Of a DNA stretch of 64,000 nt, positions 5,306-64,000 are shown piece after piece (positions within the stretch are counted from its first letter, which is position 1; every line of letters starts with the position of its first letter). The stretch lies in assembly GCF_041355105.1 (NCBI RefSeq), contig NZ_JBFUPK010000002.1, positions 1,308,037 through 1,372,036 of the forward strand, read 5' to 3'. The position numbers and the translations under genes are program-made. The notes under the pieces were generated by a model. That model was not told the origin of the DNA. It ran no database searches and saw nothing but the letters and a program-made list of their open reading frames with translations. The DNA is from Terriglobus sp. RCC_193 (GTDB lineage Bacteria; Acidobacteriota; Terriglobia; Terriglobales; Acidobacteriaceae).

Positions 5306-5583
5306 TGCTCGTACGGTCGCAGACCGTCATCCTGAACGAAGCGAAGCGGAGCTGAAGGACCTGCATTCCTCTCAACCCTCGACAATGCGCCAGGAAGCCC
5401 AAACGAACCAGCAGCCCAAAACGGGTGCCCCAGGTTCACGAAGCTAACCTGGGTATTCGTGCGAAGCACGAACCAGCGAAGCTCCAACGCACCAGGCGCG
5501 TCCCTTTCAACGGGCATGAACCGTACCAACCATAACGAGCAAGGGACTTTAGCCATCGAGGGAATTTCCAGTCGCAATCACCC
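5306..5583. repeat. Hairpin-repeat cluster between MHYT kinase and rplU
   Basis: This intergenic stretch has no gene. It contains the variable stem ACGGTC-gca-GACCGT (5313-5327) fused to the B motif (CATCCTGAACGAA ... GGACCTGCATTC). A string of further hairpins follows: CCCAGGTT with AACCTGGG (5429-5453), TTCGTGC-gaa-GCACGAA (5456-5472) and ACGCAC-cag-GCGCGT (5490-5504, one mismatch). The CCCAGGTT hairpin and its flank recur almost unchanged at 51036-51060. Confidence 0.85.
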
Positions 5584-5612
5584 TTGACCCCACCTCCGAT
5601 TCACGATATTCT
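5584..5612 (+). promoter_or_regulatory. Sigma-70-type promoter for rplU-rpmA
   Basis: TTGACC at 5584-5589 and TATTCT at 5607-5612 are separated by exactly 17 bases, a close match to the housekeeping -35/-10 pattern. It predicts a start near 5619 and a leader of about 147 bases before rplU. The leader (5619-5765) has no gene. It could carry autoregulatory structure for L21, but I recognise no known leader motif. Confidence 0.65.
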
Positions 5613-5765
5613 TGTCAGGTTTGGCGCATCTGGCGCATGGCTGTGGGGCATCCGGCCGCGTCGTGGTGGGGTCTGTACAAAGATCACTCCGCATCGCCTC
5701 TCATTTTATTGAGCTCAATGGTGTTTCAGGCGCACCGGCAACACGGCCGGGCGTGGAGGTTTGTG

Positions 5766-6098
5766 ATGTACGCAGTGATTCGTACCGGTGGTAAGCAGTA
5801 CCGTGTCGCCCCCGGCGACACCCTGAAGATTGAAACGGCAGCACACAACGACGGCGCGATCGAGTTCGCAGACGTCCTGGCTGTCAGCGCCGAAGAAGGC
5901 AAGTTTGAGCAGGAACTGGGCGGAGCCAAGGTGCTCGCTTCCGTTGTCGGCGAAGGCCGCGGCGACAAGATCCTGGTCTTCCACTACAAGCGCAAGAAGC
6001 AGTACAAGAAGCTGCAGGGCCACCGCCAGAACTTCGTTGAAGTAAAGATCAACGAGATCCTGGTCAACGGCAAGAGCTTCAAGGTCGAGAGCAAGTAA
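5766..6098 (+). CDS. rplU: Large ribosomal subunit protein bL21
   Basis: A structural protein of the 50S subunit that contacts 23S rRNA near bL20. It is 110 residues, the normal size. The start MYAVIRTGGKQYRV is the canonical L21 N terminus and is preceded by GGAGG at 5755-5759. The C-terminal basic KRKKQYKKLQGHRQ segment, which binds rRNA, is present. Longer frames starting upstream are not needed. It forms the usual pair with rpmA, 113 bp downstream, read from the promoter at 5584. Confidence 0.97.
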   Translation: MYAVIRTGGKQYRVAPGDTLKIETAAHNDGAIEFADVLAVSAEEGKFEQELGGAKVLASVVGEGRGDKILVFHYKRKKQYKKLQGHRQNFVEVKINEILVNGKSFKVESK

Positions 6099-6211
6099 CT
6101 CGCGCCCTCTGCGTTTTTGATTTTTGTTGTTTCGCCGCGTCAGCGGCACCTATTTCTGAATATTCGCGGACCACGTCTTAATGACGACGGCAACCGCAAC
6201 GAGGCAAAGCA

Positions 6212-6469
6212 ATGGCACATAAAAAAGGTGGCGGTTCCTCTTCCAACGGTCGTGACTCTAACGCGCAGCGCCTGGGCGTGAAGCGCTTCGCGGGTGAACA
6301 GGTCACGGGTGGCAGCATCCTCGTGCGTCAGCGTGGGACACCGCTCAAGGCTGGCCTGAACGTCGGTCGCGGCAAGGATGACACCCTCTTCGCCAAGGTC
6401 GGCGGACGCGTGATCTTCTCAGATCGTGGCAACCACGGCCGCTTCGTCTCCATCGAGCCGGCTGCTTAA
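6212..6469 (+). CDS. rpmA: Large ribosomal subunit protein bL27
   Basis: A 50S protein at the peptidyl-transferase centre, 85 residues long. It begins directly with [16 protein letters not shown], so it has the short N terminus of E. coli type, without the cleavable extension found in Firmicutes. The conserved GVKRFAGE and [10 protein letters not shown] segments are intact. A GAGG ribosome-binding site lies near 6200. It follows rplU, as in most bacteria. Confidence 0.97.
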
Positions 6470-6491
6470 GCACCGTATCAATCTCTTCGCG

Positions 6492-6515
6492 ATGGCCCTG
6501 CTTTGGCGGGGCCAT
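6492..6515 (+). terminator. Possible terminator after rpmA
   Basis: A 7-bp perfect stem, ATGGCCC (6492-6498) with GGGCCAT (6509-6515), lies 22 bases after the rpmA stop. The downstream tract is only moderately T-rich (TCGCATTTCC), so this is a weak intrinsic terminator at best. Confidence 0.45.
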
Positions 6516-6603
6516 TCGCATTTCCATGTTCAGCCGCACAAACGAGCGAAGCACGGAACCGCAGCCTAACACCTCACGTACTCCATACGGAGGCTGGCCG
6601 ACC

Positions 6604-7353
6604 ATGCGACTTCCCACCATCTGTGCACTCTTCTTTGCGTTTGCGATCCCCGCACTGCACGCGCATACACAGCCCATCCACATCGATGTCGCCGCAGTCC
6701 ATCCACACAAATCCACCGGTGATGATCCATCCAATCGGCAGGTTATCGGCGGACGTTTCATCGCCACAGCAACCTCCGTGCAGACGCTCATCCGCACCGC
6801 CTTCGGCATCGACCCGAAAGCCATCGTCAATGCGCCTGCGTGGACCGAGAGCGAACTCTTCGACATGCAGGCCACCATCGCCGACCACGCAGAGATCACC
6901 ACCCCGGAACAGTTCCAGCAACTGATCCTCTCGCTGTTGCAGGATCAGTTCGGCTTCCGCTTTCACCGCGAGCAGCGCGAAGGCCCTGTCTATTGGCTGG
7001 TCGTGGACAAGCCGGGTAAAACCGGCCCGGCGCTGAAGGAAACCAAACCCGGTACGCCGATGAACATGAGCATGAATGGCGACCGCCGCATCGACATGCG
7101 CGTGACCAATGCCTCCATGACAGACTTCGCCAAGTCCATTCAGAAGCGCGCAGGCCGCACCATCGAAGACCACACCGGCCTCTCCGGCAGGTACGACTTC
7201 CAACTCCGCTGGGCCACCGACCCGTCGCCGGAGTCCGACGACGCCACTCTCTTCGCCGTCATCCGCGAACAACTTGGCCTCCGCCTGCAATCTGCCAAAG
7301 GCCCCATCGAAGTCATCGTCGTCGACAACGTGAACCGGCCCGTCTCCGAATAA
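6604..7353 (+). CDS. TIGR03435 family secreted protein
   Basis: A 249-residue exported protein of unknown function from a family strongly expanded in soil Acidobacteria. The start at 6604 has GGAGG about 10 bases upstream and gives a clean signal peptide (MRLPTICALFFAFAIPALHA). The family landmarks are the early DVAAVHPHKS segment, IRTAFGID in the first third, the DHTGLSGRYDF motif, and the closing LGLRLQSAKGPIEVIVVDNV segment. The recognition rests on these motifs; no biochemical role is established. No M56/BlaR1 peptidase gene, a frequent neighbour of this family, is adjacent. Confidence 0.85.
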   Translation: MRLPTICALFFAFAIPALHAHTQPIHIDVAAVHPHKSTGDDPSNRQVIGGRFIATATSVQTLIRTAFGIDPKAIVNAPAWTESELFDMQATIADHAEITTPEQFQQLILSLLQDQFGFRFHREQREGPVYWLVVDKPGKTGPALKETKPGTPMNMSMNGDRRIDMRVTNASMTDFAKSIQKRAGRTIEDHTGLSGRYDFQLRWATDPSPESDDATLFAVIREQLGLRLQSAKGPIEVIVVDNVNRPVSE

Positions 7354-7403
7354 TGGTCGTCGTGAGGCTTGGCTTGTGGTCGCCCGGAGCGTTGGAGTGG
7401 CAC

Positions 7404-7455
7404 AGGGGGAATGCAGGTCCTTCAGCTTCGCTGCGCTTCGTTCAGGATGACGGCC
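7404..7455. repeat. B-type repeat, inverted single copy
   Basis: Reverse orientation of the B motif: GAATGCAGGTCCTTCAGC at one end and TTCAGGATGACGG at the other. It fills most of the gap between the convergent TIGR03435 and GH3 genes. The variable stem-loop seen at other copies is absent here. Confidence 0.8.
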
Positions 7456-7472
7456 TAGTTGGTTAGTCCCGG

Positions 7473-10187
7473 CTAGCGAGGTAGCTCCTGCATCCCGTCA
7501 ATGGTGAAACCAGCCGTCTGGGCGGGAGTTGTGGCCCGCGCCTCCTTCGGCTGTGCACCCCCAACGGCCACGGAGTAGCTACCCGGCTGCACCGCTCGCA
7601 CGCCCTGCGCATCCACCTCGGAAAGCTGCCGCGGCGAAAGTGTAAAGGTGATCTTCTTCGCTTCACCCGGTTTCAGCGAAACACGTTGGAAGCCCTCAAG
7701 CTGCTTTGGCGAAAGCCCGCCGTTGCCATCCGCAGGCGGCAGAAGGTAAAGCTGCGCCACTTCCTCGCCAGCTACTTTGCCCGTGTTCTTCACCGTCACC
7801 TCGGCAGTCAGCGGCTCGCCCGCCTTCAGCTTCGCGGTGGACAGCTTCAGCCCGGAATAGCCGAAGCGTGTATAGCTCAGGCCGTAGCCAAAGCCGTACA
7901 GCGGCGTTCCCGTGAAGTAGCGATAGGTTCGGTTCTTCATGGAGTAGTCATCGAAGTCCGGCAGATCACTCTCTGCCTTATAGAAGGTCACTGGCAAACG
8001 GCCGCTGGGGTTGTTCCTGCCCAGCAGCGTGTCCGCAATAGCCTGCGCGCCGGCCTCGCCCGGATACCAGGCTTCCAGTACGGCGTTGGCATGTTCATCG
8101 GCGAAGTTCACGGCGAGCGCGGAACCGTTCAGCAGCACGACAATCGTCGGTTTGCCTGTGGCGACGATCTCCTTCAGCAACTCCTCCTGCGATGCGGGCA
8201 GGTTGATGTCGGAACGGTCGCCACCAACGAATCCCGGCAGCTTCACCGGCATCTCCTCGCCTTCCAGGTCGGGTGAAAGGCCCAGCATGGCGATAACAAG
8301 GTCCGCCTGTTTTGCCGTGGCAATGGCTTCCGGCAGCAGTGTTTCCGGCTTCGGTGTCCACTCCAGGCGGATGCCGGAACCAGCGGAGGCAGAGTCGCGG
8401 GCGAACTCGACCGTGATCTCGTGTTCCTGCTTCGCGTCATCAAAGGTGATCTGGAACGCGCCGGGACGATTAGGACGATCGGCTTCCGGCATCCCGGTGG
8501 TGCCATTGATGCGCCCTCCCGGAGCGACGGGGGCCTGACGCTTCAGCTCCGTCACCTGCTTGCCATCTACGGTGACCGTGTACGCCTGCGACGAACCGCA
8601 ACCGCGGCAACGCCCGGTCTTCACCAGAAACTCATACGTACCCGCAGCCGGTGCGCTGATGGTGCCACTCCACCGTACGGCAAAGGGCCCATCCGGGGCA
8701 GCACGCAAAGGGCTGACGCCTGACCAGTCGAAGTTCAGCTCCGGATCGACACGTGTGATGACGGGTGAGCCACTGAAGCTGGAGGAGGCGAAGTATTCCG
8801 CCTTCAGCCCATGCTCCTGCGAACCCTTAGCGGGATGCAGCATGGTGCGCGACACAGGCATGGCGAAGCCTGCAACATACGGCGCGCCCGGCGCATAGAG
8901 CACACGCGTGCCACTCAATGAGGTGCGCAGGGCATCCACCGGCATCACCGGATCATGCGGCTGACCGTTGTAGTTGCCCTCCAGCGAGGACAGCGCCGCG
9001 CCATTGGGGCCAATGACGGCGACGGTCTTGTACTTACCCCCACGCAGCGGCAGAATGCCATCGTTCTTCAGCAGCACCATCGACTCTTCCGCAGCGCGCC
9101 TGGCTACTGCGGCATTCGCAGGCGAGTTCACCGCGCTGAAGGGAATCTGAGTGTAGGGAACCATCGAAGGAGGATCGAAGAGCCCGAGGCGAATGCGTGC
9201 CTCGAAGAGTCGGCGCAGACTTACGTCAATGTCTGACTCCTTGATGAGTCCGGCCTTCACCGCGGCATCCAGCTTCTTATAGGTTCCGCCGCAGTTGGTG
9301 TCAGTGCCTGCAAGCAATGCAGTCTTGTCGGCATGTTCGGCGTCAGGATCGGTTTTGTGGCCGTAGCTGCGGTAGAAGTCGTCGATGGCGCCACAGTCGG
9401 AGGTGACAAAGCCCTGGAACTTCCAGTCTTTGCGCAGGATGTCCTGCAGCAGCATCTTGCTGCCGCATGCGGGTTCACCGTCGATGCGGTTGTAAGCGCA
9501 CATGATGGAGTCGGCCCTGGCATCCACAATGGCCGCGCGGAACTGCGGCAGGTAGGTGTCCCACAGATCATGCGGCGAGGGCTGCACGTCAAAGCGGTGG
9601 CGGCTTTCCTCCGGGCCGGAGTGCACGGCAAAGTGCTTCGGCGTGGCGATCACCTTGTAGTACTTCGGGTTGATCCCTTGCAGACCCTCCACGAAGTTCA
9701 CGCCAAGCTGTGCGGTCAGGTGCGGGTCTTCACCATATGTCTCCTGCCCGCGCCCCCAGCGGGGATCACGAAAGATATTGATGTTCGGCGACCAGAATGT
9801 GAGGCCGAAGTAGATGTCGTGATTGTTATGCCGCAGGGCTTCGTTGTTCTTGGCACGTGCCTCGGTGGAAATGGCATCGCCAATGGTCTTCAGCAGCGGC
9901 GCGTCCCACGTGGCGGCCATGCCAATGGCTTGCGGAAACATGGTCGCGTATCCAGAGCGGGCTACGCCATGCAGCGCTTCGTTCCAGTAGTCATATGCGG
10001 GAACATTCAAGCGGGGGATAGCGGCGGCCCCATTGACCATCTGCGCAGCTTTCTCCTCCAATGTCATACGGCCCACCAGGTCTGCGGCGCGCTGCGCGGG
10101 AGAAAGTGACGTGTTTTGATATGCAGGCTGCTGCGCTTTGGCAGATAGTACGGTGGTGAAAAGAAGTGCCGCGATCAAACGTCGCAT
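7473..10187 (-). CDS. Glycoside hydrolase family 3 with inserted PA14 domain
   Basis: A secreted beta-glycosidase (beta-glucosidase or beta-xylosidase type) acting on plant or microbial oligosaccharides. I chose ATG 10187 (904 residues) because it begins a good signal peptide, MRRLIAALLFTTVLSAKAQ, with GGAG upstream; the frame also opens further upstream. The (beta/alpha)8 domain carries KHFAVHSGPEESRH and the nucleophile Asp264 in TSDCGAIDDF. The second alpha/beta domain is interrupted by a PA14 carbohydrate-binding insert (from about GLKAEYFASSSF), and a fibronectin-III-like domain closes the protein. The SDCGAI context and PA14 fit the xylosidase-like branch. It follows the kinase gene by 95 bp on the same strand and may be partly co-transcribed. 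Confidence 0.92.
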   Translation of the reverse strand: MRRLIAALLFTTVLSAKAQQPAYQNTSLSPAQRAADLVGRMTLEEKAAQMVNGAAAIPRLNVPAYDYWNEALHGVARSGYATMFPQAIGMAATWDAPLLKTIGDAISTEARAKNNEALRHNNHDIYFGLTFWSPNINIFRDPRWGRGQETYGEDPHLTAQLGVNFVEGLQGINPKYYKVIATPKHFAVHSGPEESRHRFDVQPSPHDLWDTYLPQFRAAIVDARADSIMCAYNRIDGEPACGSKMLLQDILRKDWKFQGFVTSDCGAIDDFYRSYGHKTDPDAEHADKTALLAGTDTNCGGTYKKLDAAVKAGLIKESDIDVSLRRLFEARIRLGLFDPPSMVPYTQIPFSAVNSPANAAVARRAAEESMVLLKNDGILPLRGGKYKTVAVIGPNGAALSSLEGNYNGQPHDPVMPVDALRTSLSGTRVLYAPGAPYVAGFAMPVSRTMLHPAKGSQEHGLKAEYFASSSFSGSPVITRVDPELNFDWSGVSPLRAAPDGPFAVRWSGTISAPAAGTYEFLVKTGRCRGCGSSQAYTVTVDGKQVTELKRQAPVAPGGRINGTTGMPEADRPNRPGAFQITFDDAKQEHEITVEFARDSASAGSGIRLEWTPKPETLLPEAIATAKQADLVIAMLGLSPDLEGEEMPVKLPGFVGGDRSDINLPASQEELLKEIVATGKPTIVVLLNGSALAVNFADEHANAVLEAWYPGEAGAQAIADTLLGRNNPSGRLPVTFYKAESDLPDFDDYSMKNRTYRYFTGTPLYGFGYGLSYTRFGYSGLKLSTAKLKAGEPLTAEVTVKNTGKVAGEEVAQLYLLPPADGNGGLSPKQLEGFQRVSLKPGEAKKITFTLSPRQLSEVDAQGVRAVQPGSYSVAVGGAQPKEARATTPAQTAGFTIDGMQELPR

Positions 10188-10282
10188 CGGATCTGCTCCG
10201 GGAAGTTCAGGTGGGTAATGCTCGCCTGAAGCATAGCCGGAAGGGCATGGCTGTGGCAATTACTTCGCGGGGCGAACGAAAG

Positions 10283-11698
10283 TCACGCCGGAATGGTGAT
10301 GCTGACGACACAGCCTTGTCCAGAGGGGTGGTTTGCAAGCTGCACGGTGCCGCTGTGGGCCTCCACTACGTGCTGCGTCAGCAGCAGGCCAATGCCGCTT
10401 CCTTCCGGCTTGGTGGTGTAGAAGGGCACAAACAGGTTCGATTCATTGAGCACGCCCAGGCCGTAGTCGCGGATTTCAATGACAAGGTCATCGCCAGCGA
10501 CTCGCCACATGACTTCAATTGGGCGAGCGGCGCTGCCTTCCTGCGCAGAACGCTCCAGTGTGGCTTCTGCTGCATTCTTGAGCAGGTTAATCATTGCCTG
10601 TTCCATCAGCACCGGGTCAATCAAAGCAACACGATCTTCAGATTCGGTGATGGTCACTGGAACGCCATGATCCAGAGCCGTGACCTGCTGCATGAATGCA
10701 AGGACTGCAACGGGTTGACGTTGCAAAGCGGGTAGCGCGGAGAGTTTGCGATAGCCCTGAAGGAATCGATTCAACGAGTCGGCACGCGACTCGATGATCC
10801 CCAGCCCCTTGCGCAACTGGGCATCGCGCGATGGATTGCTTTCAGCGTCTGTTTCAGGGGCGAGACGCAGTTGCAGCGTTCCGGCAATGGACTTGATCGG
10901 GGCAAGCGAATTATTAATCTCGTGCCCCAGAACTCGAATGAGACGTTGCCATGCCTGGCGTTCTTCTTCGCGGAGTGCTGAGCCGATCTCTGTCAGCATC
11001 ACGAGCCAATGCCTGCGTCCCTGCAGGCGGAAAGCGCTGCGCCGCAGCATCCATCTTCCGGCAAGGCCGCGAGGCGGTTGCGGCATAAGTGTGCTGTCTT
11101 CCAATTCGAGGAGCGATTCGACTTGAAGCTCCTCCGCGGAGCAGCCCATATCCGTGAGCTGCAATCCCAACGCGGTGCGTGCCGCGCGATTGACCATGGC
11201 CAATGCACCGTCTTCTGCAAACGCGAGCACCGGCGCATCCATGGTGGAGAGGACACGATCCACCAATGCTCTTGCTTCGGTCGCGTCACGTTTCTGCGCC
11301 TGCAACGACTCAGAGAGTCGATTGATTTCCATGGCGAGATCGCCTGCCGCATCCCCACGACGCGCACCACGCACACGAAATGAAAAGTCCTCGCTGCGAA
11401 TGGCCGCAATGACATTGGTGAGTGTTTGCAGTGGTGTGACGATGCGGTGAAGCGCGCGTTCTGCAAGGAAGAGCCAGAGGATGGCGAGAGTGAGAAGGCA
11501 GATGAAGATGGTGAAGCTATCAACGCCCCATGTGTGGAGCAACGTGCCACACAGCACCAGAAGCAGCGTTCCAATGGCGGCCAGCCACAGGCGCATGCGC
11601 AATTCGTAGCTCACGCTGCGTGAGGAGGCTGCGCCGTTCTGTCCGGGTTTCCAGGGCGCGGAGTCCAGAAAAACTTCGGAACGCTCTTCTTCCTTCAT
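10283..11698 (-). CDS. NtrY-like sensor histidine kinase
   Basis: A 471-residue membrane kinase, the last gene of the export operon. Two membrane helices (about residues 36-80) flank almost no periplasmic loop, followed by a HAMP segment, a PAS-like domain (from about 150) and a HisKA domain with His259 in GHEINNSLAPI. The ATPase domain has NLLKNAAEAT, RDYGLGV and SGIGLLL. The GHEINN box and PAS-HAMP order are typical of the NtrY family, which partners NtrC-type regulators. The regulator gene ends 39 bp upstream on the same strand, so the two are a cognate pair by position. With so little periplasmic sequence it probably senses within the membrane or cytoplasm (inference). Confidence 0.92.
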   Translation of the reverse strand: MKEEERSEVFLDSAPWKPGQNGAASSRSVSYELRMRLWLAAIGTLLLVLCGTLLHTWGVDSFTIFICLLTLAILWLFLAERALHRIVTPLQTLTNVIAAIRSEDFSFRVRGARRGDAAGDLAMEINRLSESLQAQKRDATEARALVDRVLSTMDAPVLAFAEDGALAMVNRAARTALGLQLTDMGCSAEELQVESLLELEDSTLMPQPPRGLAGRWMLRRSAFRLQGRRHWLVMLTEIGSALREEERQAWQRLIRVLGHEINNSLAPIKSIAGTLQLRLAPETDAESNPSRDAQLRKGLGIIESRADSLNRFLQGYRKLSALPALQRQPVAVLAFMQQVTALDHGVPVTITESEDRVALIDPVLMEQAMINLLKNAAEATLERSAQEGSAARPIEVMWRVAGDDLVIEIRDYGLGVLNESNLFVPFYTTKPEGSGIGLLLTQHVVEAHSGTVQLANHPSGQGCVVSITIPA

Positions 11699-11737
11699 GG
11701 AGTTACTCCAGCGGGTAGCGCAAAGAGCATACTTCCG

Positions 11738-13147: not shown

Positions 13148-13165
13148 TGGTGTTTCCTGATGCGG

Positions 13166-45078: not shown

Positions 45079-45221
45079 GTCATTCTGAGGAGCATAGCGA
45101 CGAAGAATCCCCACGGAGCTTCGTCGCACCACTATCGTTCTGGGCTTTCTCACAAGGAACTTTGGGACATTCCGATGAAGTGTGAAATCGCCGTCATCCT
45201 GAGCGAAACGAAGAATGACGG
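45079..45221. repeat. Mixed A/B repeat copy after the MFS gene
   Basis: It starts with the A motif (GTCATTCTGAGGAGCATAGC, then GAAGAATCCCC). It ends with a short B fragment arranged as a hairpin: CCGTCAT (45191-45197) and ATGACGG (45215-45221) around CCTGAGCGAAACGAAG. It lies between the convergent MFS and PDZ genes and holds no gene. Confidence 0.75.
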
Positions 45222-50744: not shown

Positions 50745-51309
50745 GTCCTCTATGGTATCGGTTCCGGGCGCTTTAGGGCATCCGCCATATTCCCACTGTC
50801 TTGAATGAGTGTCATTCTGAGCGAAGCGAAGAATCCCAACGACTTTTCAATGAGCACAACAGTTCAAAGTTTTCTGCCACAGAACCAAACCAGCTTCGCA
50901 AAACCAGCTTCGCAAAGCGAAGCTCCAACGGCCGAAGGCCGTCATCCTGAGCGAAGCCGAAGGACCTGCATTCCTACACACCCTCTACAACGCACCAGGA
51001 AACCCCAACAAACCACCAGCCAAAAAACCGGGTGCCCCAGGTTCGCGAAGCTAACCTGGGTATCGCTCCAAAGGAGCGATCTAACGCACCAAGTGCGTCC
51101 AGCGAAGCTTCAAGGCACGAAAATGTGTTCCCAGCGAAGCTCCAACGGCCGAAGGCCATCATCCTGAGCGAAACGAAGGACCTGCATTCTTCTCTGCTCA
51201 CTACTAATGCTCCGGGTGGCCACGCGCAAGGCTGGCCCAAACCTCTTGCCTGACGCAATTGTCAGAATCCTGTAAGGATTCGCCGCACTCATCGCAGTAC
51301 CATGTCTGC
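50745..51309. repeat. Largest hairpin-repeat cluster (serS to phosphatase gene)
   Basis: A gene-free gap holding, in order: an A motif (from 50811); the constant stem AGCTTCGC-aaa-GCGAAGCT (50906-50924); the variable stem ACGGCC-gaa-GGCCGT (50928-50942); and a B motif to about 50977. Next come the hairpin string CCCAGGTT/AACCTGGG (51036-51060), ATCGCTCC-aaa-GGAGCGAT (51062-51080) and ACGCAC-caa-GTGCGT (51084-51098). Last is another variable stem ACGGCC-gaa-GGCCAT (51145-51159) with a second B motif to about 51195. The promoter of the phosphatase gene must lie downstream of this, but I see no clear boxes. Confidence 0.88.
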
Positions 51310-53906: not shown

Positions 53907-53935
53907 CGCCTGTATCCACTTGCTAAACTATTGCT

Positions 53936-56166: not shown

Positions 56167-56290
56167 GGTGTCTGTATCTGCAGGTACGCATCCACCGGAG
56201 CTCCGTCTTCGTCTAACCTGCTAGCACACATCTGTTGCAAGCCTGGTCGCGCGAGCGAGCGGACGCCGGGCAGAAGGATTGGTTCTTCTG

Positions 56291-58429
56291 ATGATTGGTC
56301 CGCAGAACGCTGTTTATTTGTCTTCCCTCCGGCGGCTTGCTTCTCGAAGCGTAGCCCGCTGGATGCCTCTGGCCGCTGCGGCACTCCTTGTGTCCGCGGC
56401 GCCGCTGTCTGCCCAGAAGAACGCGAACGCTCCCGCGCCGCTGCCCCCGGTTACAGCATCGCAGGATGCCTCAGGCCCCAGTGCGGCTTATTACCACTAT
56501 GGTCTGGCGCACATCTATGAAGACCTTGCCACCACGCAGGGTCGCAGCGACTACGCCACGCAGGCCATCGAACAGTACAAGCTTGCGCTGGACGCTGATC
56601 CCTCCTCCACCTATCTGCAGGACGGACTCGCCAGCCTGTACTTCAAGCTGGGCCGCATCCGCGAAGCTGTTCAGGTAGCGCAGGACCAGGTGAAGAAGAA
56701 CAATGACGACCTGGAAGCACATCGCCTCCTCGGTCGCATCTATTACCGTTCCCTCGGCGACGCGCAGGGTCCGCAGCAGCAACAGATGGTTGAACTTGCA
56801 CGCGCGGAATACGAGATGCTCGTCAAACTTGAACCCAACGTCGCGGAAAACCATCTCCTGTTGGGCCAGTTGTACGAGGTAAGCCATGATTCGGTGAAAG
56901 CCGAAGAGCAGTTCAAAGCAGCGCAGACACTCGACGGCGGTACAGAAGAATCGCTGTTGAACCTCGCTCGCCTCTACAGTGAACAGGGTGACACGCAGCG
57001 CGTGGTCAACACGCTTTCTGCTCTCCCGGTAGAAGACCGCACCGCACGCATCGAACTCGCCATCGGCGCCAGCTACGACCAGTTGCACAAGCCGAAAGAA
57101 GCCGCCGCAGCCTATCAGCGCGCGCTGGACAGCGAAGGCGACAACATGGACGCCATGCACGGTCTTGCGAACGCGCTGCTCGCGCAGGACAAGCTGGATG
57201 ACGCGTTGAAGGTATACAACGACATCCTCGCTGCCGAACCGCAGGACGCGCAGACCCACATCAAGATATCGGAAATCCAGCGTCGCCAGGGCCATTACGA
57301 CACTGCTCTCGCCACGCTGCAGAAGGCGAAAGCCTCCATTCCAGACAATGAAGAACTCATCTTCAACGAAGCTCTGCTCTATGACGCTCTCGGTCGTTAC
57401 GCCGACGCGGAGACCGCGCTGAAGGGTGTTCTGCAGACCACGGCAAAGTCAGACAACAGCTACACCGATGGTGAACGCAACAACCGCGCCATCTTCCTCG
57501 ACCGTCTCGCCACGCTCTATCGCGAAGAGAACAAGATCGACCTGGCCGTGGATACCTACAAGCAGATGACGGCTCTTGGCGGCGAGTTCAAATCGCGCGG
57601 CGTGGGCGGCGCAGTCGATGCCTATCGCGACGCGCATCAGTGGGACAAGGCAGAAGCAGTCGCCGCCGCAGCCGCCAAGGCAATGCCGGCCGATCGTGAT
57701 GCGCAGATGCTCTGGGCAGGCCAGCTTGCCGACACCGGCAAGGCGGAGGAAGGCATTGCGCTGCTCAAGAAACAGTTGAACGGCAAGGGCCCGGACGACC
57801 GCATCACTTACCTCACGCTGGCGCAGGCATATCTTCGTCTGCGCAAGTACGATGATGCGAACGCCGCGCTGGACAAGGCTGAACCGCTCTCCACACGCAA
57901 CGAAGACAAGCTCTACCTCTGGTTCCTGCGCGGCACCATTGACGACAAGCAGAACAAGAAAGACGAAGCGGAGACATGGTTCCGCAAATCGCTCGACGTG
58001 GACCCCAACAATGCGCAGACGCTCAACTATCTCGCATACATGTTCGCGGAACGCGGTGTGAAACTGCCGGAAGCACTCACTATGGTGAAGAAGGCCGTCG
58101 AGCTTGATCCGCAGAACTATGCTTATCTCGACACCGAGGGCTGGGTCTACTTCAAAATGGGCGAATACGCCATGGCCGAGAATCTGCTGCAGAAGGCTGT
58201 GGAACGCAACGCCACGGACCCTACCGTGCACGATCATCTGGGTCAGGCGCTGGAGAAGCAGAACAAGCTGAAGCCCGCCGTGGCACAGTGGGAACGTGCG
58301 CTGGTGGAATACAGCCGCTCGCTGCCTGCGGATATCGAACCGGACGACGTCAGCAATCTGCACAAGCGTCTGGATTCTGCAAAGGTAAAGCTCGCTAAGA
58401 ACGCAGCGGGAACGAAGGTGATGCCGTAG
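56291..58429 (+). CDS. Large TPR-repeat envelope protein
   Basis: A 712-residue protein. ATG 56291 is the best start (AAGGA about 12 bases upstream; a TTG at 56279 is in frame). A signal or anchor helix (WMPLAAAALLVSAAPLSAQ) precedes roughly 14 tetratricopeptide repeats covering 60-700, for example AIEQYKLALDADPSSTYLQD, AAAYQRALDSEGDNMDAMHG and AENLLQKAVERNATDPTVHD. TPR arrays form protein-binding scaffolds. No catalytic domain is visible. It follows purH by 124 bp and precedes the HD hydrolase gene by 47 bp. Function unknown. Confidence 0.88.
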   Translation: MIGPQNAVYLSSLRRLASRSVARWMPLAAAALLVSAAPLSAQKNANAPAPLPPVTASQDASGPSAAYYHYGLAHIYEDLATTQGRSDYATQAIEQYKLALDADPSSTYLQDGLASLYFKLGRIREAVQVAQDQVKKNNDDLEAHRLLGRIYYRSLGDAQGPQQQQMVELARAEYEMLVKLEPNVAENHLLLGQLYEVSHDSVKAEEQFKAAQTLDGGTEESLLNLARLYSEQGDTQRVVNTLSALPVEDRTARIELAIGASYDQLHKPKEAAAAYQRALDSEGDNMDAMHGLANALLAQDKLDDALKVYNDILAAEPQDAQTHIKISEIQRRQGHYDTALATLQKAKASIPDNEELIFNEALLYDALGRYADAETALKGVLQTTAKSDNSYTDGERNNRAIFLDRLATLYREENKIDLAVDTYKQMTALGGEFKSRGVGGAVDAYRDAHQWDKAEAVAAAAAKAMPADRDAQMLWAGQLADTGKAEEGIALLKKQLNGKGPDDRITYLTLAQAYLRLRKYDDANAALDKAEPLSTRNEDKLYLWFLRGTIDDKQNKKDEAETWFRKSLDVDPNNAQTLNYLAYMFAERGVKLPEALTMVKKAVELDPQNYAYLDTEGWVYFKMGEYAMAENLLQKAVERNATDPTVHDHLGQALEKQNKLKPAVAQWERALVEYSRSLPADIEPDDVSNLHKRLDSAKVKLAKNAAGTKVMP

Positions 58430-58476
58430 GCACGGTCGCTCCAATTGACGCCTGCTACGACCTGCGCGCGTGCAGC

Positions 58477-59589
58477 GTGCGCGGCACAGCAGAGCAGCCG
58501 CTTCTACAGCGCGAGTGGTCAGAAACCGCGGAGCTTCGCGCACCGGGCTTCGAACGCGACCGCGAACGTGTCGTGCAGGCGCGCGCTTTCCGTCGCCTCG
58601 CAGGCAAAACACAGGTTTTCACCAGCCGCGAATCCGATCACTTCCGTTCACGTCTCACCCACACTATTGAAGTCGTGCAGATCGCGCGTGAAGTGGCGCG
58701 CTCACTCGGCCTGAATGAAGAACTCGTCGAAACCCTCGCGCTCGTTCATGACATCGGCCATCCGCCCTTTGGCCACGCGGGCGAACGCGCGCTGGATCAG
58801 TGCCTGCGGAAACACGGTCTGCGCTTCGATCACAATCTGCACGCCCTCCGCATCGTGGAACACTTTGAAGATTGGTACGCTGCGCACCGCGGGTTGAATC
58901 TCACACTCGGCGTACGCGAAGGCATCGTGAAACACTCGCGCGATTACAGCATCATCGACTATCCCGCGCTGCAGCCGTACTTCCTCGATCAGCGCCCGCC
59001 ACTCGAAGCGCAGGTGATCGATCTCGCCGATGAAATCGCTTACCTCACCGCCGATCTGGATGACGGCGTAGAGAGTGGCCTGCTTGAGATCGAACACATC
59101 TGTGCCAACATCGGCATCATGGGCCGCGCTTACGAAAAGGTGCAGGAGATCCATCCCGGCGTCTCGCAGAAGTTTCATTTTCACGAGGCGCTGCAGGTCA
59201 TGCAGAACGAACTCACCTCCGACCTCATCGAAACCACCGCAGCCAACGTCATGCAGCATCGCCTGCGTTCGCTCGACGATGTGCGCAACTGCCCGGAGCG
59301 TGTCGCTACCTTTTCTCCTGTCATGGAAGCACAGCGGCAGGAAGAAAAGGCGTATCTCTACGGCAAGCTCTACACCTGCGACTTTCTCGAAGCAGAACAC
59401 GCCAAGGCAGACCACGTGGTCACCACGCTCTTCCACTTCTACATGCAGGACCCTTCACGCATGCCCGCCAGCTACGTGGAAGAAAGCGCCGTCGACGGCC
59501 TGCCGCGTACCGTCGCCGATTACATCGCAGGCATGACAGACAACTACATCCTGCAGCAGTTCTGGATGGTCTCCAAACTCCGCCGCTAG
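58477..59589 (+). CDS. dgt: HD-domain dGTP triphosphohydrolase-like protein
   Basis: A 370-residue hydrolase of the dGTPase family, which releases tripolyphosphate from deoxynucleoside triphosphates. The metal-binding set H...HD...D is visible: His62 in SRLTHTIEV, His91-Asp92 in LVHDIGHPPFGHAGE, and a distal Asp in DLADEIAYLTADLDD. RVVQARAFRRLAGKTQVF is the family N-terminal segment. The start is uncertain: GTG 58477 is the only good candidate downstream of the TPR stop, no ribosome-binding site is evident, and the frame remains open upstream. The family's substrate specificity cannot be read from sequence. Confidence 0.9.
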   Translation: MRGTAEQPLLQREWSETAELRAPGFERDRERVVQARAFRRLAGKTQVFTSRESDHFRSRLTHTIEVVQIAREVARSLGLNEELVETLALVHDIGHPPFGHAGERALDQCLRKHGLRFDHNLHALRIVEHFEDWYAAHRGLNLTLGVREGIVKHSRDYSIIDYPALQPYFLDQRPPLEAQVIDLADEIAYLTADLDDGVESGLLEIEHICANIGIMGRAYEKVQEIHPGVSQKFHFHEALQVMQNELTSDLIETTAANVMQHRLRSLDDVRNCPERVATFSPVMEAQRQEEKAYLYGKLYTCDFLEAEHAKADHVVTTLFHFYMQDPSRMPASYVEESAVDGLPRTVADYIAGMTDNYILQQFWMVSKLRR

Positions 59590-59928
59590 GCGAGGCTGAG
59601 CCGGATTGCAGTGTCCGCGCTGGCGTATTGGATACCCGCGCCGTCATTCTGAGCGAAGCGAAGAATCCCGACCCACTTTACTGCGCCCATACCGTCCATC
59701 CCTTTCAGCCACAGACCCACACCAGCTTCGCAAAGCGAAGCTCAAACGACCGTAAGGTCGTCATCCTGAGCGAAGCCGAAGCCGAAGCATGCCCCTCGAG
59801 CGAAGCGAAGGGGACCTGCTTTCCCATCCTGGTCACGGATATCGTTCGGAAGAGATCAAGGGCAGCTGTCCCACGCAGAAACTGTCATAGCAAACTGCTG
59901 CCACCTCCGGTATGCTGCCAAAACAAGC
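59590..59928. repeat. Hairpin-repeat cluster before the amidohydrolase gene
   Basis: An A motif (from 59643, GTCATTCTGAGCGAAG, GAAGAATCCCGAC), then the constant stem AGCTTCGC-aaa-GCGAAGCT (59724-59742). The variable stem ACGACC-gtaa-GGTCGT (59746-59761) and a B motif follow. A further hairpin, CCCCT...AGGGG (about 59793-59813), is followed by GACCTGCTTTCCC. The last 100 bases before the amidohydrolase start show no clear promoter. No gene is present. Confidence 0.85.
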
Positions 59929-61197
59929 ATGAAGATCGCATCTCTAGCCTTCGCCCTGCTCTCTCCTGCGGCACTTCTCGCGCAGCAGTCGCAGCATTCC
60001 GTGGTGCTTCACGCGGCACGCATCCTCGACGTAACAGCAGGGAAGACACTCTCTCCCGGCGAAGTCCTCGTGGAAGGCAACAAAATCAAGGAAGCGGGAA
60101 CGCACGTCACCCATCCCGCAGGTGCAGAAGTCATTGACCTTGGCGACACCACGTTAATGCCCGGCCTCATCGATGCGCACACGCATCTCTTTCTCCACGT
60201 CGGCAACGAAGCAAATCAAACCGTCGATGAAAGCGTCCCGGAGCGCACACTCATCGCAGCCGACGCCGCAAAGCACGACCTCCTTGCAGGCTTCACCGCT
60301 GAACGTGATATGGGAACGGAAGGCGCAGGATGCGCCGACGTCGCGGTGCGCAACGCCATCAATCACGGACTCATTCCCGGCCCGCGCATGCGTGTGTCCT
60401 GCAACGCCATCGACATCACCGGCGGCCACGAAGACAACAGCGGCAAGAACCCTGAGCAGCATCTGTTAAGCAACGCCGACCGCGCGGACAACACAGACGA
60501 AGTTCTGCGCGTCATCCGCGAACAGCGCAAGCAGGGCGCGGATTTCACCAAGATGTACGAAACGGGACGCGACAGCCTCCACGACGACGTCTTCACCTCG
60601 CCATATCAATACACGCAGGAACAACTCGCAGCAGCCGTGTCAGAAACAAAGCGCACCGGCAGCCGCGTTGCCGTCCACGCCACAGCAGAACCCGGCACTG
60701 GCTACGCGGTGGCCGCAGGCGTTGCATCGGTCGATCACGCGGATTACCTCTCGCCTGAAACCATGAAGCAGATGAAGGAGAAGGGCATCTTCGCCGTGCC
60801 CACCTTTGCCATCAGCGAATACTTCGCAGAACATGCGGAATCACCCACTGCCGCGCAGCGCCGTCGCGAAAGCGAGGCTTTTCATGCGGCTGAATTCAAG
60901 AAGCAACTCGCTGCAGGCGTACCCTTCGCCGTCGGTTCTGACGTAGGCCCGTTCCCACACGGCACGCAGGCGCGCGAGATGGAACTCATGGTGAAGTACG
61001 GTATGAATCCTGCGGACGTACTTCGCGCAGACCTGATCAACGGCGCAAAACTTCTCGACTGGGAAAACAGCATCGGTCAGTTGAAGCCCGGTTTCTTTGC
61101 CGATGTCATTGCGGTTCCCGGCGATCCCATCAAGGACATCACCGCACTCGAACATGTGCAGTTCGTTATGAAAAACGGTGAGCTGATCAAACGATGA
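59929..61197 (+). CDS. Secreted metal-dependent amidohydrolase (imidazolonepropionase-like)
   Basis: A 422-residue periplasmic hydrolase. The signal peptide is MKIASLAFALLSPAALLAQ. The amidohydrolase barrel carries His84-x-His86 (IDAHTHLFLH). A probable carboxylated Lys at about 209 is in GADFTKMYETG. His in VAVHATAEPG, His in SVDHADYL and Asp in VGSDVGPFPHG complete the metal site. The C-terminal beta-sandwich closes with LKPGFFADVIAVPGDP. This pattern fits the Xaa-Pro dipeptidase/prolidase-like and organophosphate-cleaving group, so the substrate may be a dipeptide or other amide. Its last codon overlaps the start of the next gene (ATGA). Confidence 0.92.
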   Translation: MKIASLAFALLSPAALLAQQSQHSVVLHAARILDVTAGKTLSPGEVLVEGNKIKEAGTHVTHPAGAEVIDLGDTTLMPGLIDAHTHLFLHVGNEANQTVDESVPERTLIAADAAKHDLLAGFTAERDMGTEGAGCADVAVRNAINHGLIPGPRMRVSCNAIDITGGHEDNSGKNPEQHLLSNADRADNTDEVLRVIREQRKQGADFTKMYETGRDSLHDDVFTSPYQYTQEQLAAAVSETKRTGSRVAVHATAEPGTGYAVAAGVASVDHADYLSPETMKQMKEKGIFAVPTFAISEYFAEHAESPTAAQRRRESEAFHAAEFKKQLAAGVPFAVGSDVGPFPHGTQAREMELMVKYGMNPADVLRADLINGAKLLDWENSIGQLKPGFFADVIAVPGDPIKDITALEHVQFVMKNGELIKR

Positions 61198-61409
61198 GTC
61201 TCTTCAGTCGTGCACGTTACGACCAGAACGGAAAGCAGATCTGCACTCGTTGTGGCAGCGACCGCTTTGAGCGCGTCCTCCGCGAAGGCTTTCTAAAAAC
61301 GCACATCATGCCATTCTTCCATCGCTACCCGTGGCGCTGCGTTATCTGCCACCGGACTGTCTACCGCTCCATCCGCCGTAACTCAGAAGACCCCGCCGAC
61401 TGGCGCTGA
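61194..61409 (+). CDS. Small zinc-ribbon-like protein, family not recognised
   Basis: A 71-residue basic protein with two CxxC pairs (Cys17-Cys20 in CTRC, Cys49-Cys52 in CVIC), the spacing of a zinc ribbon. Between them lies a hydrophobic-aromatic stretch (KTHIMPFFHRYPWR). It overlaps the amidohydrolase stop by four bases and ends directly against the convergent ABC-F gene. It is probably a real gene because of the coupling and the cysteine pattern. Function unknown. Confidence 0.75.
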   Translation: MSLFSRARYDQNGKQICTRCGSDRFERVLREGFLKTHIMPFFHRYPWRCVICHRTVYRSIRRNSEDPADWR

Positions 61410-63215
61410 TTACATTGTGCGTTCGGCCAGCACTTCCCATCGTGCATACAGCTCCGCCAGCTCACCCTTCGCATTCGTCTGTTCCAGCAGCGCATTCTGC
61501 AGCGCGGCGGCATCGACTGCAACGGCAGGGGTTGCCAGCATAAGCTCCGCAGCTGCAACACGTGCTTCCACAGTCGCAATGCGATCTTCCAGCGTGTCCC
61601 ATTCGCGCTGTTCATTGAAGCTCAGCTTCTTCTTCGCAGCAGGAGCGGCCTCGACGGGTTCTGCGACCTTCGCAACTTCTGCAACCGGTGCAGCCGCAAC
61701 CGGCTTCGCATTCATCCAGTCTTCCCACTGCGCAAAGTCGGCAAACTGTTCCGTGTTGCCCTTGCCATCCAGTCCCAGAACAGTTGTGGCTACGCGATTC
61801 AGCATGTAGCGATCATGCGTCACCAGCACCAGCGCACCGGGATACTCCAGCAGACTCTCTTCCAGGATCTCCAGCGTCGGAATATCCAGATCGTTCGTCG
61901 GCTCATCCAGCAGCAGCAGGTCCGCAGGTTGCAGCATCAGCCGCGCAATCAGCACACGCGCACGTTCGCCGCCGCTCAACCGTTCCACCGGCTGATTCAA
62001 CTGTTCACCGGTAAACAGGAAACGCGCAGCCCAGCTGGCCACATGAATCTGCTGCCCATTGTGGACTACGGAGTCGCCCTCGGGCGAAAGCGCCTGCCGC
62101 AGCGTCAGCTTCGTATCAATCTCACGCGCCTGCGAGAAATACACCACGCGCAACTGATGCGCGCGTTTGATGGTGCCGGTCGTCGGCTCCAGATCGCCGG
62201 TCAACAAACGCAGAATCGTCGTCTTACCGCTGCCGTTCGGCCCCACCAGGCCAACGCGCGTACGCGCCGTCATCACATAGTTCAGATGGTTAACAATCGT
62301 CCTGCCGCCCAGCTCCAGCGACACATTCTCTGCTTCAATCAGCCGCTTCGTCTGACGATCCGTGGCAACAAAATCAATGTTGGCAGAAGACCTCTGCGCA
62401 CGAGAGTTGCGGTCCGCCAGTTCGCCAATCATCTCGTGCGCCTTATCAATGCGCGCCTTGCTCTTGGTGGTGCGCGCCTTCGGTCCACGCCGCAACCACT
62501 CAATCTCCGTCTTCACCTGGTTCTTCAGGCTTTCCGTTTGTTTGGCCTGTGCTGCCAGGTACAGCGCGCGCTCTTCCAGAAACTCGGAATACGCACCATG
62601 CACGCGGAAGATGCCGTCAGGATACACACGGTTCAACTCTGCCGTTTCGTTGCTCACAGCTTCCAGAAAGAAGCGGTCGTGCGAAATAATCACGCACGCG
62701 CTCGGGGTGTAGTTGAGCAAATCTTCCAGCCACTCAATGCCCCCCAGATCAAGATGGTTAGTCGGCTCGTCCAGGAGCAATACGTCAGGCTCAACGATGA
62801 CGCCTTCGCAGATGGCCAGACGCTTGCGCCAGCCCCCCGACAGGCTACGCGCTTCCGCATCTTCGTCAGGAAATCCGGTCCGGCCCATCAGTTCGCGCAG
62901 CCGCTGTTCATGCTCGTTTTCCGGCACGTTGCCATCCACTAACGCACGCTCCAGAATGCCGCGCACCGTCATGCCGGCAGGGAACTCGCTGATCTGGTGA
63001 ATCACACCCACACGCGCCCGTTTGCGCACAGCCACATCACCGGTATCAGGGTCTTCGCGTCCGGCAAGAATGTTCAACAGTGTCGATTTACCCGCGCCAT
63101 TGGGTCCCACCAGCCCAAGCCGTTCGCCATCCGAAACCACAAGCGAAACATTCTGGAAGAGGACACGAGCGCCATAGCGCTTCGAAACAGATTGCGCGTT
63201 AAGAATCGGCGGCAT
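61410..63215 (-). CDS. ABC-F family ATPase
   Basis: A 601-residue soluble protein with two ABC domains and no membrane part, acting on the ribosome in family members studied. Domain 1 has Walker A GPNGAGKST and signature LSGGWRKRL; domain 2 has Walker A GPNGSGKTT and signature LSGGERARV. Both have Glu-containing Walker B (LLLDEPTNHLD; LLLDEPTNDLD). A linker rich in charged residues connects them. The C-terminal tail (about 530-601) is a coiled coil after an Ala/Val-rich hinge, as in Uup-type members. Its stop abuts that of the zinc-ribbon gene. Confidence 0.93.
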   Translation of the reverse strand: MPPILNAQSVSKRYGARVLFQNVSLVVSDGERLGLVGPNGAGKSTLLNILAGREDPDTGDVAVRKRARVGVIHQISEFPAGMTVRGILERALVDGNVPENEHEQRLRELMGRTGFPDEDAEARSLSGGWRKRLAICEGVIVEPDVLLLDEPTNHLDLGGIEWLEDLLNYTPSACVIISHDRFFLEAVSNETAELNRVYPDGIFRVHGAYSEFLEERALYLAAQAKQTESLKNQVKTEIEWLRRGPKARTTKSKARIDKAHEMIGELADRNSRAQRSSANIDFVATDRQTKRLIEAENVSLELGGRTIVNHLNYVMTARTRVGLVGPNGSGKTTILRLLTGDLEPTTGTIKRAHQLRVVYFSQAREIDTKLTLRQALSPEGDSVVHNGQQIHVASWAARFLFTGEQLNQPVERLSGGERARVLIARLMLQPADLLLLDEPTNDLDIPTLEILEESLLEYPGALVLVTHDRYMLNRVATTVLGLDGKGNTEQFADFAQWEDWMNAKPVAAAPVAEVAKVAEPVEAAPAAKKKLSFNEQREWDTLEDRIATVEARVAAAELMLATPAVAVDAAALQNALLEQTNAKGELAELYARWEVLAERTM

Positions 63216-63254
63216 CGTTCTAGTTTATCGGTTTTATGCGGCAATGACGCGCTC

Positions 63255-63692
63255 TTACAGCATCTGCACAAAGAACCAGCGTTCATCCGGCTCATCACCC
63301 GGCTGAATCACCACCTGCCCGCGTGCCCGCTGCATCAGCGACGGAAACTTATCGCCCCACTCCACCAGCACCAGCGCATTCGGATCGGCTTCCATCTCCT
63401 CGATGCCGAGTGAGAGCAACTCCTCATCTCTCTCAAGACGATACAGATCCAGGTGATACAGCTTCAGCTTCGTGCCTTGATACTCATGCACTAGCGTGAA
63501 CGTGGGGCTGGTTACATCTTCCGCATTCGCGCCAATGCACTGTGCAATGCCTTTGACCAGCGTGGTCTTACCCGCGCCCAGGTCGCCCTTCAGAATCACG
63601 AGGCGCGGCGCAGGCAACATCAGTTCCATGATGTTCTGCGCCAGCGCCATCGTGCCATTCACGCTGCGTGTTTTCAGCCGTTTTTCAATCAT
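63255..63692 (-). CDS. tsaE: tRNA threonylcarbamoyladenosine biosynthesis ATPase TsaE
   Basis: A 145-residue P-loop ATPase that resets the TsaBD complex making t6A37 of ANN-decoding tRNAs. The P-loop is GDLGAGKTTLVKG and the TsaE-specific segment is DVTSPTFTLVHEY, then LYHLDLYRL. A Glu-Trp (VEWGDKF) closes the site. It lies 39 bp upstream of the ABC-F gene on the same strand and may be co-transcribed. tsaB and tsaD are not in the window. Confidence 0.96.
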   Translation of the reverse strand: MIEKRLKTRSVNGTMALAQNIMELMLPAPRLVILKGDLGAGKTTLVKGIAQCIGANAEDVTSPTFTLVHEYQGTKLKLYHLDLYRLERDEELLSLGIEEMEADPNALVLVEWGDKFPSLMQRARGQVVIQPGDEPDERWFFVQML

Positions 63693-64000
63693 CTGCGTTC
63701 ACTTTCCAGCGTCGTTCACAAAAAAGCTGCGTCCAGGGCGAAGCTCGTACGCGCAAAGCGCGTCATCCTGAACGGAGCGCAGCGGAGCTGAAGGACCTGC
63801 ATTTCTTTCCCACACGAGAATGTTTCCGGGAAACAGAAAAACTTCTCAACGAAGCATTCCAGGATGCACAGAAGAATGCAGGTCCTTCGACTTCACTCCG
63901 CTATGCTTCGTTTCGCTCAGGATGACGAAGTATCAGAGATTTTCGCGAAGTAGTAAAAATCCCCTGATACCCCGCGCACTCAGCGTTCCAAAAACTAGTC
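63693..64000. repeat. B-type paired inverted-repeat unit at the right end
   Basis: The variable stem ACGCGC-aaa-GCGCGT (63749-63763) leads into a 165-bp inverted-repeat unit (63762-63926). The left end is GTCATCCTGA...GGACCTGCATTTC and the right end is GAATGCAGGTCC...TCAGGATGAC. The interior (GAAGCATTCCAGGATG) resembles the interior of the 1607-1740 unit. From 63927 to 64000 I see no gene or signal. Confidence 0.88.

What the first reader, a model, noticed from the sequence alone, without database searches (positions are those of the whole stretch)
5313..63763. Intergenic hairpin family with a covarying stem fused to a constant tail
At 1594, 5313, 50928, 51145, 59746 and 63749 a small stem-loop of form ACGnnn-loop-n'n'n'CGT runs directly into the constant CATCCTGA(G/A)CGAA...GGACCTGCATT tail. 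The arms differ (AAC, GTC, GCC, GCC, ACC, CGC), but the opposite arm changes with them, giving perfect pairing in five of six copies, while the tail hardly changes. Compensatory change argues that the hairpin itself is maintained, as DNA cruciform or RNA. I know of short interspersed palindromes in bacteria, including ones with similar CCTGAGCGAA cores, but a constant-tail, variable-stem module of this kind is not something I can match to a described class.
Basis: seen in the sequence. Interest (0 to 1): 0.75.

Follow-up and report, generated by a model that had tools for sequence, protein, structure and literature searches.

The report
Strand-locked REP repeat with variable hairpin
The repeated small hairpins are real: they sit on a known class of tiny bacterial repeats (CGTC-tagged REPs), their two arms change together, and they nearly always lie on the same, cytosine-rich DNA strand, which hints that they spread as single-stranded DNA during replication.

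Summary
All six hairpins are where stated and five pair perfectly; the genome has 147 copies of the hairpin-slot+tail pattern. With anchors outside the stem, two of six pairs covary: 34 two-sided changes against 8.4 in shuffles (0/500), at most 3 when slid. Outer ACG/CGT and the closing C-G hardly vary.

The "constant tail" has a class: CGTC-tagged REPs (PMC3733652). The hairpin's 3' CGT is the REP tag. Compensatory hairpin changes are in print for REPINs (PMC3116915). New is the hairpin capping the tag (3 of 19 genus genomes).

Also new to me: orientation follows the chromosomal strand rather than transcription. Hairpin copies lie on the C-rich strand 86:3, 16:0 in two relatives; the exact core elsewhere 46:3, mostly Acidobacteriota; another genus was inconclusive, 15:8. 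Single mismatches show no G-U preference. I favour a folded single-stranded DNA intermediate at the replication fork over an RNA element. The enzyme is unknown; none of 34 Y1 loci examined has the core. Neutral template switching remains a rival for the covariation.

The parts
1594..1608 (+). companion hairpin, stem class AA (ACGAAC-GAA-GTTCGT); preceded by AGCGAAGCTC box 1582-1591
1606..1648 (+). CGTC-tagged REP (tag 1606-1609) to GGACCTGCATT
5302..5513 (+). lineage-specific insert; relative G125 has 13 nt here between the same two aligned flanks
5313..5327 (+). companion hairpin, stem class GT (ACGGTC-GCA-GACCGT)
5325..5367 (+). CGTC-tagged REP
7410..7452 (-). CGTC-tagged REP copy without companion hairpin
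45192..45207 (+). further CGTC core without companion hairpin and with a different downstream body
50810..50837 (+). CATTC-type REP (tag TGTC, palindrome ATTCT..AGAAT)
50928..50942 (+). companion hairpin, stem class GC
50940..50972 (+). CGTC-tagged REP
51145..51159 (+). companion hairpin, stem class GC, one mismatch (tag reads CATC)
51157..51188 (+). REP with changed tag CATC
59642..59669 (+). CATTC-type CGTC-tagged REP
59746..59761 (+). companion hairpin, stem class AC, 4-nt loop GTAA; preceded by hairpin AGCTTCGC-AAA-GCGAAGCT 59724-59742
59759..59822 (+). CGTC-tagged REP with an inserted stretch before GGACCTGCTTT
63749..63763 (+). companion hairpin, stem class CG (ACGCGC-AAA-GCGCGT)
63761..63803 (+). 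CGTC-tagged REP, left half of an inverted pair
63875..63927 (-). inverted REP partner without companion hairpin

Best explanation
The module is a mobile, non-coding element derived from the CGTC-tagged REP class. In this species it carries an extra hairpin just 5' of the REP palindrome, so that the normally unpaired tag (CGT of CGTC) is one foot of a 6-bp hairpin ACG-NN-C-loop-G-N'N'-CGT. The element spreads, or is retained, in one orientation relative to the chromosomal strand because an enzyme acts on it as folded single-stranded DNA, most likely at the replication fork. The hairpin's shape, its tag foot and the C-G closed purine loop are needed; the two middle pairs may drift as long as they pair, so that mainly paired variants go on to make copies. 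Shown: REP-class tail, insertion where relatives have none, covariation limited to two pairs, orientation locked to the C-rich strand independently of transcription in this genome. Inferred: that GC skew marks the replication strand, the single-stranded intermediate, the enzyme (a Y1/HUH transposase acting in trans is the guess), and that pairing is selected at the copying step.
For: Covariation: 34 two-sided cells against 8.4 shuffled, 0/500; covariation score 0.324 against 0.101, 0/500; slides at most 3; n=107. Insertion: window 5302-5513 is 13 nt in G125 with both flanks aligned; at 1.6k, 51k and 59.7k G125 and G031 have spacers of 25-80 nt, and no core was found in any of the ten 20-kb stretches of each. 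REP identity: tag CGTC in 34 of 45 hairpinless cores, TGTC in 4, against PMC3733652. Strand polarity in this genome: hairpin copies 86:3 at |skew| of 0.05 or more; stretches by majority 31:2 with 2 ties; tandem sites 45:3 and 27:2 whichever strand the genes are on; stretches not chosen for cores, p=2e-4. Control 8-mers with G=C: mean share 0.50, largest majority 0.77 of 164, against 143:14 for the core. Relatives 16:0. Exact core elsewhere 46:3 with strand-balanced gene skew; Acidobacteriota 33:1, other phyla 13:2. Single mismatches A-C/C-A 10, G-T/T-G 5. Five Y1 genes exist, three over the REP-associated cut-off. Precedent for strand-specific ssDNA recognition of REPs: PMC8266576, passages.
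Against: No enzyme is tied to it: 0 of 34 Y1 loci looked at carry the core (1 has a loose match). No clear target duplication at the empty sites shown. In another genus (G034, eight 9-kb stretches) orientation was 15:8, inconclusive. Without a skew threshold polarity is weaker: 101:8 with and 78:17 without hairpin, 67:27 for the exact core elsewhere. In the cross-genome set gene direction also matters: same 37, opposite 19; tandem sites with genes on the G-rich strand only 9:5. GC skew is a proxy; ori and ter were not located and skew changes sign often along the contigs. Stem class follows the tail tree partly (21 changes, shuffled mean 27.6, 0 of 200 as low), so copies are not independent; two of the five measures (pairs with two-sided change, further pair types) do not beat shuffles. 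In relatives 5 of 16 stems do not pair in this register. DNA folding energies do not beat shuffles (six folds of five stretches, z -1.1 to +0.7).
Confidence: 0.55

Rival explanations
1. Neutral quasi-palindrome correction: replication template switches copy one arm onto the other, so stems stay paired and change by several bases at once without any selection for pairing.
For: The mechanism can create and mend stems (PMC8794818, abstract). Several classes differ at both middle pairs (GT, AA, CG). Short stem and short loop are favourable (inference).
Against: Inversion of the whole hairpin would flip the loop; pyrimidine loops are 1 of 107. Outer ACG/CGT and the closing C-G stay nearly fixed while only the middle varies, which free correction does not predict. 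One-arm correction without loop inversion is not excluded.
Confidence: 0.25
2. RNA element: 3'-UTR hairpins that shield mRNA ends, stems kept paired by selection on the transcript.
For: Convergent sites are enriched and divergent ones depleted: 69 and 15 of 184 classed intergenic cores against 83 and 142 of 482 gaps of 150 nt or more. Di Nocera et al. argue that REPs are transcribed.
Against: In tandem sites orientation follows the C-rich strand even where the genes are on the other strand, 27:2. No G-U excess. The hairpin is followed by CATCCTGA, not by a run of T.
Confidence: 0.15
3. Few founder classes copied many times: the apparent covariation reflects a handful of old events, and pairing has no role now.
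For: About seven classes; GT makes 35 of 71 perfect stems; class partly follows tail type. Classes GT, GC, AA, AC and CA also occur in G031 or G125.
Against: At least 21 class changes on a tree of 57 tails; all four Watson-Crick types occur at pair 5; copies with one mismatch are a minority (20 of 107).
Confidence: 0.2
4. Polarity signal: the oriented repeats serve the cell as replication-direction markers, like FtsK-orienting sequences (recalled, not searched).
For: Orientation 86:3, 16:0.
Against: Copy number is 147, 10, 6 and, in the other 16 genus genomes, 0, and many stretches have none, unlike a needed chromosome signal.
Confidence: 0.05

Closest known systems
CGTC-tagged REPs (Di Nocera, De Gregorio, Rocco 2013, PMC3733652)
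   Same: Terminal CGTC (or TGTC) tag, palindrome beginning AT, short dispersed intergenic copies between convergent and unidirectional genes, stem subclasses with complementary changes, inverted dimers, no flanking tyrosine transposase.
   Different: There the tag is unpaired; here CGT is paired in a second hairpin with a variable stem. The palindrome is ATTCT/AGAAT or (A)TCCT/AGGA around GCGAAGC rather than a plain 8-9 bp stem with 4-5 nt loop; in the CATCC type the first A has no partner T. 3' end CCC or CCTGC instead of CCA. Direct neighbours outnumber inverted ones here (41 to 5 within 250 nt). Strand polarity: the words 'lagging' and 'leading strand' occur 0 times in the text.
REPINs and RAYTs (Bertels and Rainey 2011, PMC3116915)
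   Same: Conserved REP ends with a variable hairpin region in which compensatory changes are called common; miniature mobile DNA, with parallels drawn to single-strand transposition.
   Different: Associated with RAYTs; the hairpin there lies between two inverted REPs, here it lies outside, on the tag of one REP.
TnpAREP/REP substrates (PMC8266576) and IS200/IS605 ends (PMC6006769)
   Same: Folded ssDNA hairpin with a tetranucleotide foot, strand-specific recognition, use of the lagging-strand template.
   Different: No enzyme is linked to the present element.

Membership tests
CGTC-tagged REP superfamily | terminal CGTC tag (often changed to TGTC or CCTC) | tested here: met
   65 of 66 hairpin copies and 34 of 45 hairpinless copies have CGTC, 4 TGTC (864-kb sample)
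CGTC-tagged REP superfamily | tag not involved in base pairing | tested here: not met
   in this genome 71 of 107 anchored modules pair CGT perfectly in a second hairpin. In 130 exact-core sites of other genomes no hairpin of 5 bp or more ends on the tag. So the hairpin copies are a derived variant, not plain members
CGTC-tagged REP superfamily | stem 8-9 bp with complementary AT in first and second position, loop 4-5 nt | tested here: inconclusive
   AT start met by the CATTC type; the CATCC type ends AGGAC, so its first A is unpaired. Outer perfect stem 4-5 bp, then GA mismatches and GCGAAGC; the one CATTC-type fold tried was not the predicted minimum
CGTC-tagged REP superfamily | intergenic, convergent or unidirectional gene pairs preferred | tested here: met
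   tandem 100, convergent 69, divergent 15, in genes 7, unclassed 13 of 204 (own crude gene caller)
CGTC-tagged REP superfamily | no flanking tyrosine transposase | tested here: met
   0 of 34 Y1 loci (5 own, 29 of the best matches in 60 family genomes; gene plus about 1.5 kb each side), one loose match in L177
CGTC-tagged REP superfamily | head-to-head dimers predominant, clusters rare | tested here: not met
   5 inverted against 41 direct neighbours within 250 nt in this genome; inverted pairs about 60 nt apart are frequent in G028
REPIN/RAYT system | cognate RAYT gene flanked by the repeat | tested here: not met
   five Y1 genes in the genome, none with the core within about 1.5 kb
Rfam RNA families | match above gathering score | tested here: not met
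   0 matches in the window
Single-strand mobilised element (IS200/IS605-like process) | orientation tied to replication strand | tested here: inconclusive
   met by the GC-skew proxy in this genus and for the exact core elsewhere, 15:8 in G034; ori and ter not mapped
Single-strand mobilised element (IS200/IS605-like process) | HUH/Y1 enzyme that cuts the folded strand | not testable with these tools
   needs biochemistry

The most novel reading that the evidence does not exclude
CGTC-tagged REPs, the superfamily said to lack a dedicated transposase, are spread across bacterial phyla by a common single-strand, replication-coupled process, whose footprint is the strand-locked orientation seen here. 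In this genus the element gained a tag-capping hairpin whose shape is read by the machinery while its middle pairs are free to vary.
Probability: 0.35. Interest if true: 0.75.

Novelty: new variant of a known kind. Interest (0 to 1): 0.58.

Why it matters
How CGTC REPs spread was left open in the 2013 paper that defined them, since no transposase flanks them. A strong strand bias, independent of transcription in this genome, present in two relatives and for the exact core elsewhere, gives a direct, cheap test of replication-coupled single-strand mobility. The covarying hairpin also gives a natural series of stem variants for testing whether the shape or the letters of a REP-like hairpin are recognised.

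Tried and rejected
Rfam: no match in the window. An outer helix GCTC/GAGC suggested by some DNA folds: one pair fails in 21 of 52 while GCTC stays fixed; GCTC was my anchor, so the test is weak. Papers holding the letters CATCCTGAGCGAA or TCTGAGCGAAGCGAAGAAT: none in the held library. A REP paper on strand orientation: none evident in the listings (listings only), nor in the terms searched in PMC3733652 and PMC12306157; most subscription papers are not held. My first 10-mer control for polarity was contaminated by the repeats themselves (38 10-mers, median majority share 0.90) and was replaced by 8-mers outside masked repeats (among all 1034 8-mers of any make-up 2 reach 0.91). The full module in named genomes: 0 (the collection may leave out the own genome). 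A link between very stable DNA mini-hairpins of the GCGAAGC kind and the purine loops was considered: papers seen only as a listing, stability recalled, not tested. A coding origin was rejected: loops of 3 and 4 nt alternate among perfect stems, which breaks any frame.
Full report
What was checked. The core is far above chance in the window (18 against 3.5 expected). The window lies in a 4.22-Mb, 9-contig genome (G000:C2:1308037-1372036) with 179 exact CATCCTGARCGAA and none of the reversed control; the hairpin-slot+tail pattern, which does not ask for pairing of the middle bases, has 147 copies.

Covariation. I took modules by anchors outside the stem (GCTC NN upstream, CATYCTGARC downstream), so that all six pairs were free. 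The sample is 80 stretches of 20 kb plus the window, 1.66 Mb; 40 stretches were taken mostly around listed cores, 40 were not chosen for cores. It holds 107 such modules. Pairs 1, 2, 3 and 6 (ACG/CGT and the C-G closing the loop) hardly vary; pairs 4 and 5 are paired in 93 and 90 of 107 against shuffled means of 55.6 and 38.8, maxima 71 and 52. Seventy-one of 107 are perfect, in classes GT 35, GC 11, AA 10, AC 8, CG 4, AT 2, CA 1. On 52 distinct modules with a 3-nt loop, 96.2% of cells pair against 84.9% in shuffles; 34 cells change on both sides against 8.4 (0 of 500), and sliding the partner leaves at most 3. Two of the five measures, the number of pairs with a two-sided change (2, shuffled 2.0) and of further pair types (9, shuffled 7.7), do not beat shuffles. 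Related copies inflate such counts: on a tree of 57 tails from the first 40 stretches and the window, perfect stems only, the class changes at least 21 times, fewer than the 27.6 of shuffled labels (0 of 200 as low), so class and tail are linked but far from locked. Single mismatches (20 modules) are A-C or C-A 10, G-T or T-G 5, others 5: no sign of G-U tolerance on the tail strand.

What the tail is. CGTCATYCTGARCGAAG... has the tag and the AT start of the CGTC-tagged REPs (PMC3733652: abstract and outline; passages; sections 7, 15 and part 1 of 17). The tag is CGTC in 34 of 45 hairpinless cores and TGTC in 4; the paper reports TGTC and CCTC as common changes. The core is found in 83 of 100 genomes of the family. 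In G028 it forms inverted pairs about 60 nt apart, the REPIN arrangement. None of 34 Y1 transposase loci has the core nearby; these are the five own ones and 29 of the best matches in 60 family genomes, so a part of all Y1 genes there. The paper says the same of CGTC REPs. Two features of the class are not met by the hairpin copies: the tag is paired, and direct neighbours outnumber inverted ones 41 to 5. I therefore call it a variant derived from CGTC REPs, not a plain member.

What the hairpin is. It is a genus-level addition: the GCTC-anchored module is in 2 of 120 family genomes, one of them the window's own, and the hairpin-slot+tail pattern is in 3 of 19 genus genomes with 147, 10 and 6 copies. 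Of the 16 copies in the two relatives, 11 pair perfectly in this register and 5 do not. None of 130 exact-core sites in other genomes has a hairpin of 5 bp or more on the tag. It is one of several small hairpins in these arrays; others are GCTTCGC-AAA-GCGAAGC upstream and TCGNNC...GNNCGA after CCTGGGTA. The cassette was gained recently or lost in relatives: at window 5302-5513 G125 has 13 nt between the same aligned flanks, and at 1.6k, 51k and 59.7k both relatives have spacers of 25-80 nt; at 7.4k G125 has a longer, unrelated spacer. No core was found in the ten 20-kb stretches of either relative around this region.

Orientation. While checking strand preference I found that core orientation follows local GC skew. 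With skew measured after masking 500 nt around each core, copies with the hairpin slot lie on the C-rich strand 86 to 3 and those without it 57 to 11 at |skew| of 0.05 or more; without any threshold the figures are 101:8 and 78:17. By stretch it is 31 to 2 with 2 ties. The stretches not chosen for cores (40 plus the window in three parts) give 8:1 (+:-) in negative-skew and 12:44 in positive-skew stretches, p=2e-4. Strand-averaged third-position skew of genes gives 159:17. In tandem sites the result is the same whether the genes are on the C-rich strand (45:3) or the G-rich strand (27:2), so transcription is not the cause in this genome. Control 8-mers with equal G and C outside the repeats average 0.50 (sd 0.11, largest majority 0.77, n=164). 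In G031 and G125 all 16 listed hairpin loci agree, two of them about 440 bp apart. In other genomes the exact core, itself with 8 G and 8 C, agrees 57:7 by masked local skew and 46:3 by strand-balanced gene skew; without threshold 90:40 and 67:27. There gene direction plays a part too: same 37, opposite 19, and tandem sites with genes on the G-rich strand give only 9:5. Most of the 49 are Acidobacteriota (33:1), others 13:2. REPs of G034, another genus, gave 15:8 in eight stretches, inconclusive. Two Legionella loci were left out.

Mechanism. By convention the G-rich strand is the leading strand and so also the lagging-strand template (recalled). The element's complement would then be exposed single-stranded at the fork. 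IS200/IS605 elements use the lagging-strand template (passages of PMC6006769), and TnpAREP binds folded ssDNA REPs in a strand-specific manner (passages of PMC8266576). Five Y1 genes occur in the genome: two match the IS200 model, one of them below its cut-off, and three exceed the cut-off of the REP-associated model. I infer a folded ssDNA intermediate whose hairpin shape must be intact, which would also explain why only the middle pairs drift. Neutral template-switch correction (PMC8794818, outline and abstract) is the main rival for the covariation, though only 1 of 107 loops is pyrimidine-rich as an inversion would make it.

Verdict. Real, and of a known kind: REPINs with compensatory hairpin change were described before (PMC3116915, passages, section 10 part 1). 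The tag-capping hairpin is a new variant as far as the papers seen go. The strand lock, which I did not find in print in the searches or in the passages, is the part worth following.

Noticed in passing
L136, L201, L202, L203, L211, L212, L214 (other family genomes): Inside the REP, between CTGAGCGAAG and CGAAGTCGAAGGA, palindromic stretches of very different sequence and length are inserted: a second constant-frame, variable-stem position at the REP tip. A few short ones occur in the own genome too (L032, L048, L070).
   Followed up: partly
window 1740-1890: Tandem array of about 20-nt half-hairpin units (GCTTCGCTTCGTGCGTGCAA...) next to the first module.
   Followed up: no
G000:C1 about 200-640 kb: Most stretches sampled here carry no or one core while others carry about 10 in 20 kb; element-poor stretches tend to have lower GC, perhaps acquired DNA.
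   Followed up: partly
L060, L063, L046 (own genome): Third-codon-position GC skew reaches about 0.4-0.5 on both gene strands in some 20-kb stretches and is near zero in others, a patchy strand asymmetry.
   Followed up: partly
window 50813, 59645; L033-L038: A second REP type, GTCATTCTGAGCGAAGCGAAGAATCCC, often sits about 117 nt upstream of the CATCC type in the same direction, making a larger composite unit.
   Followed up: partly
L071-L075: Five Y1 transposase genes without the core at their flanks; which repeats they act on is open.
   Followed up: partly
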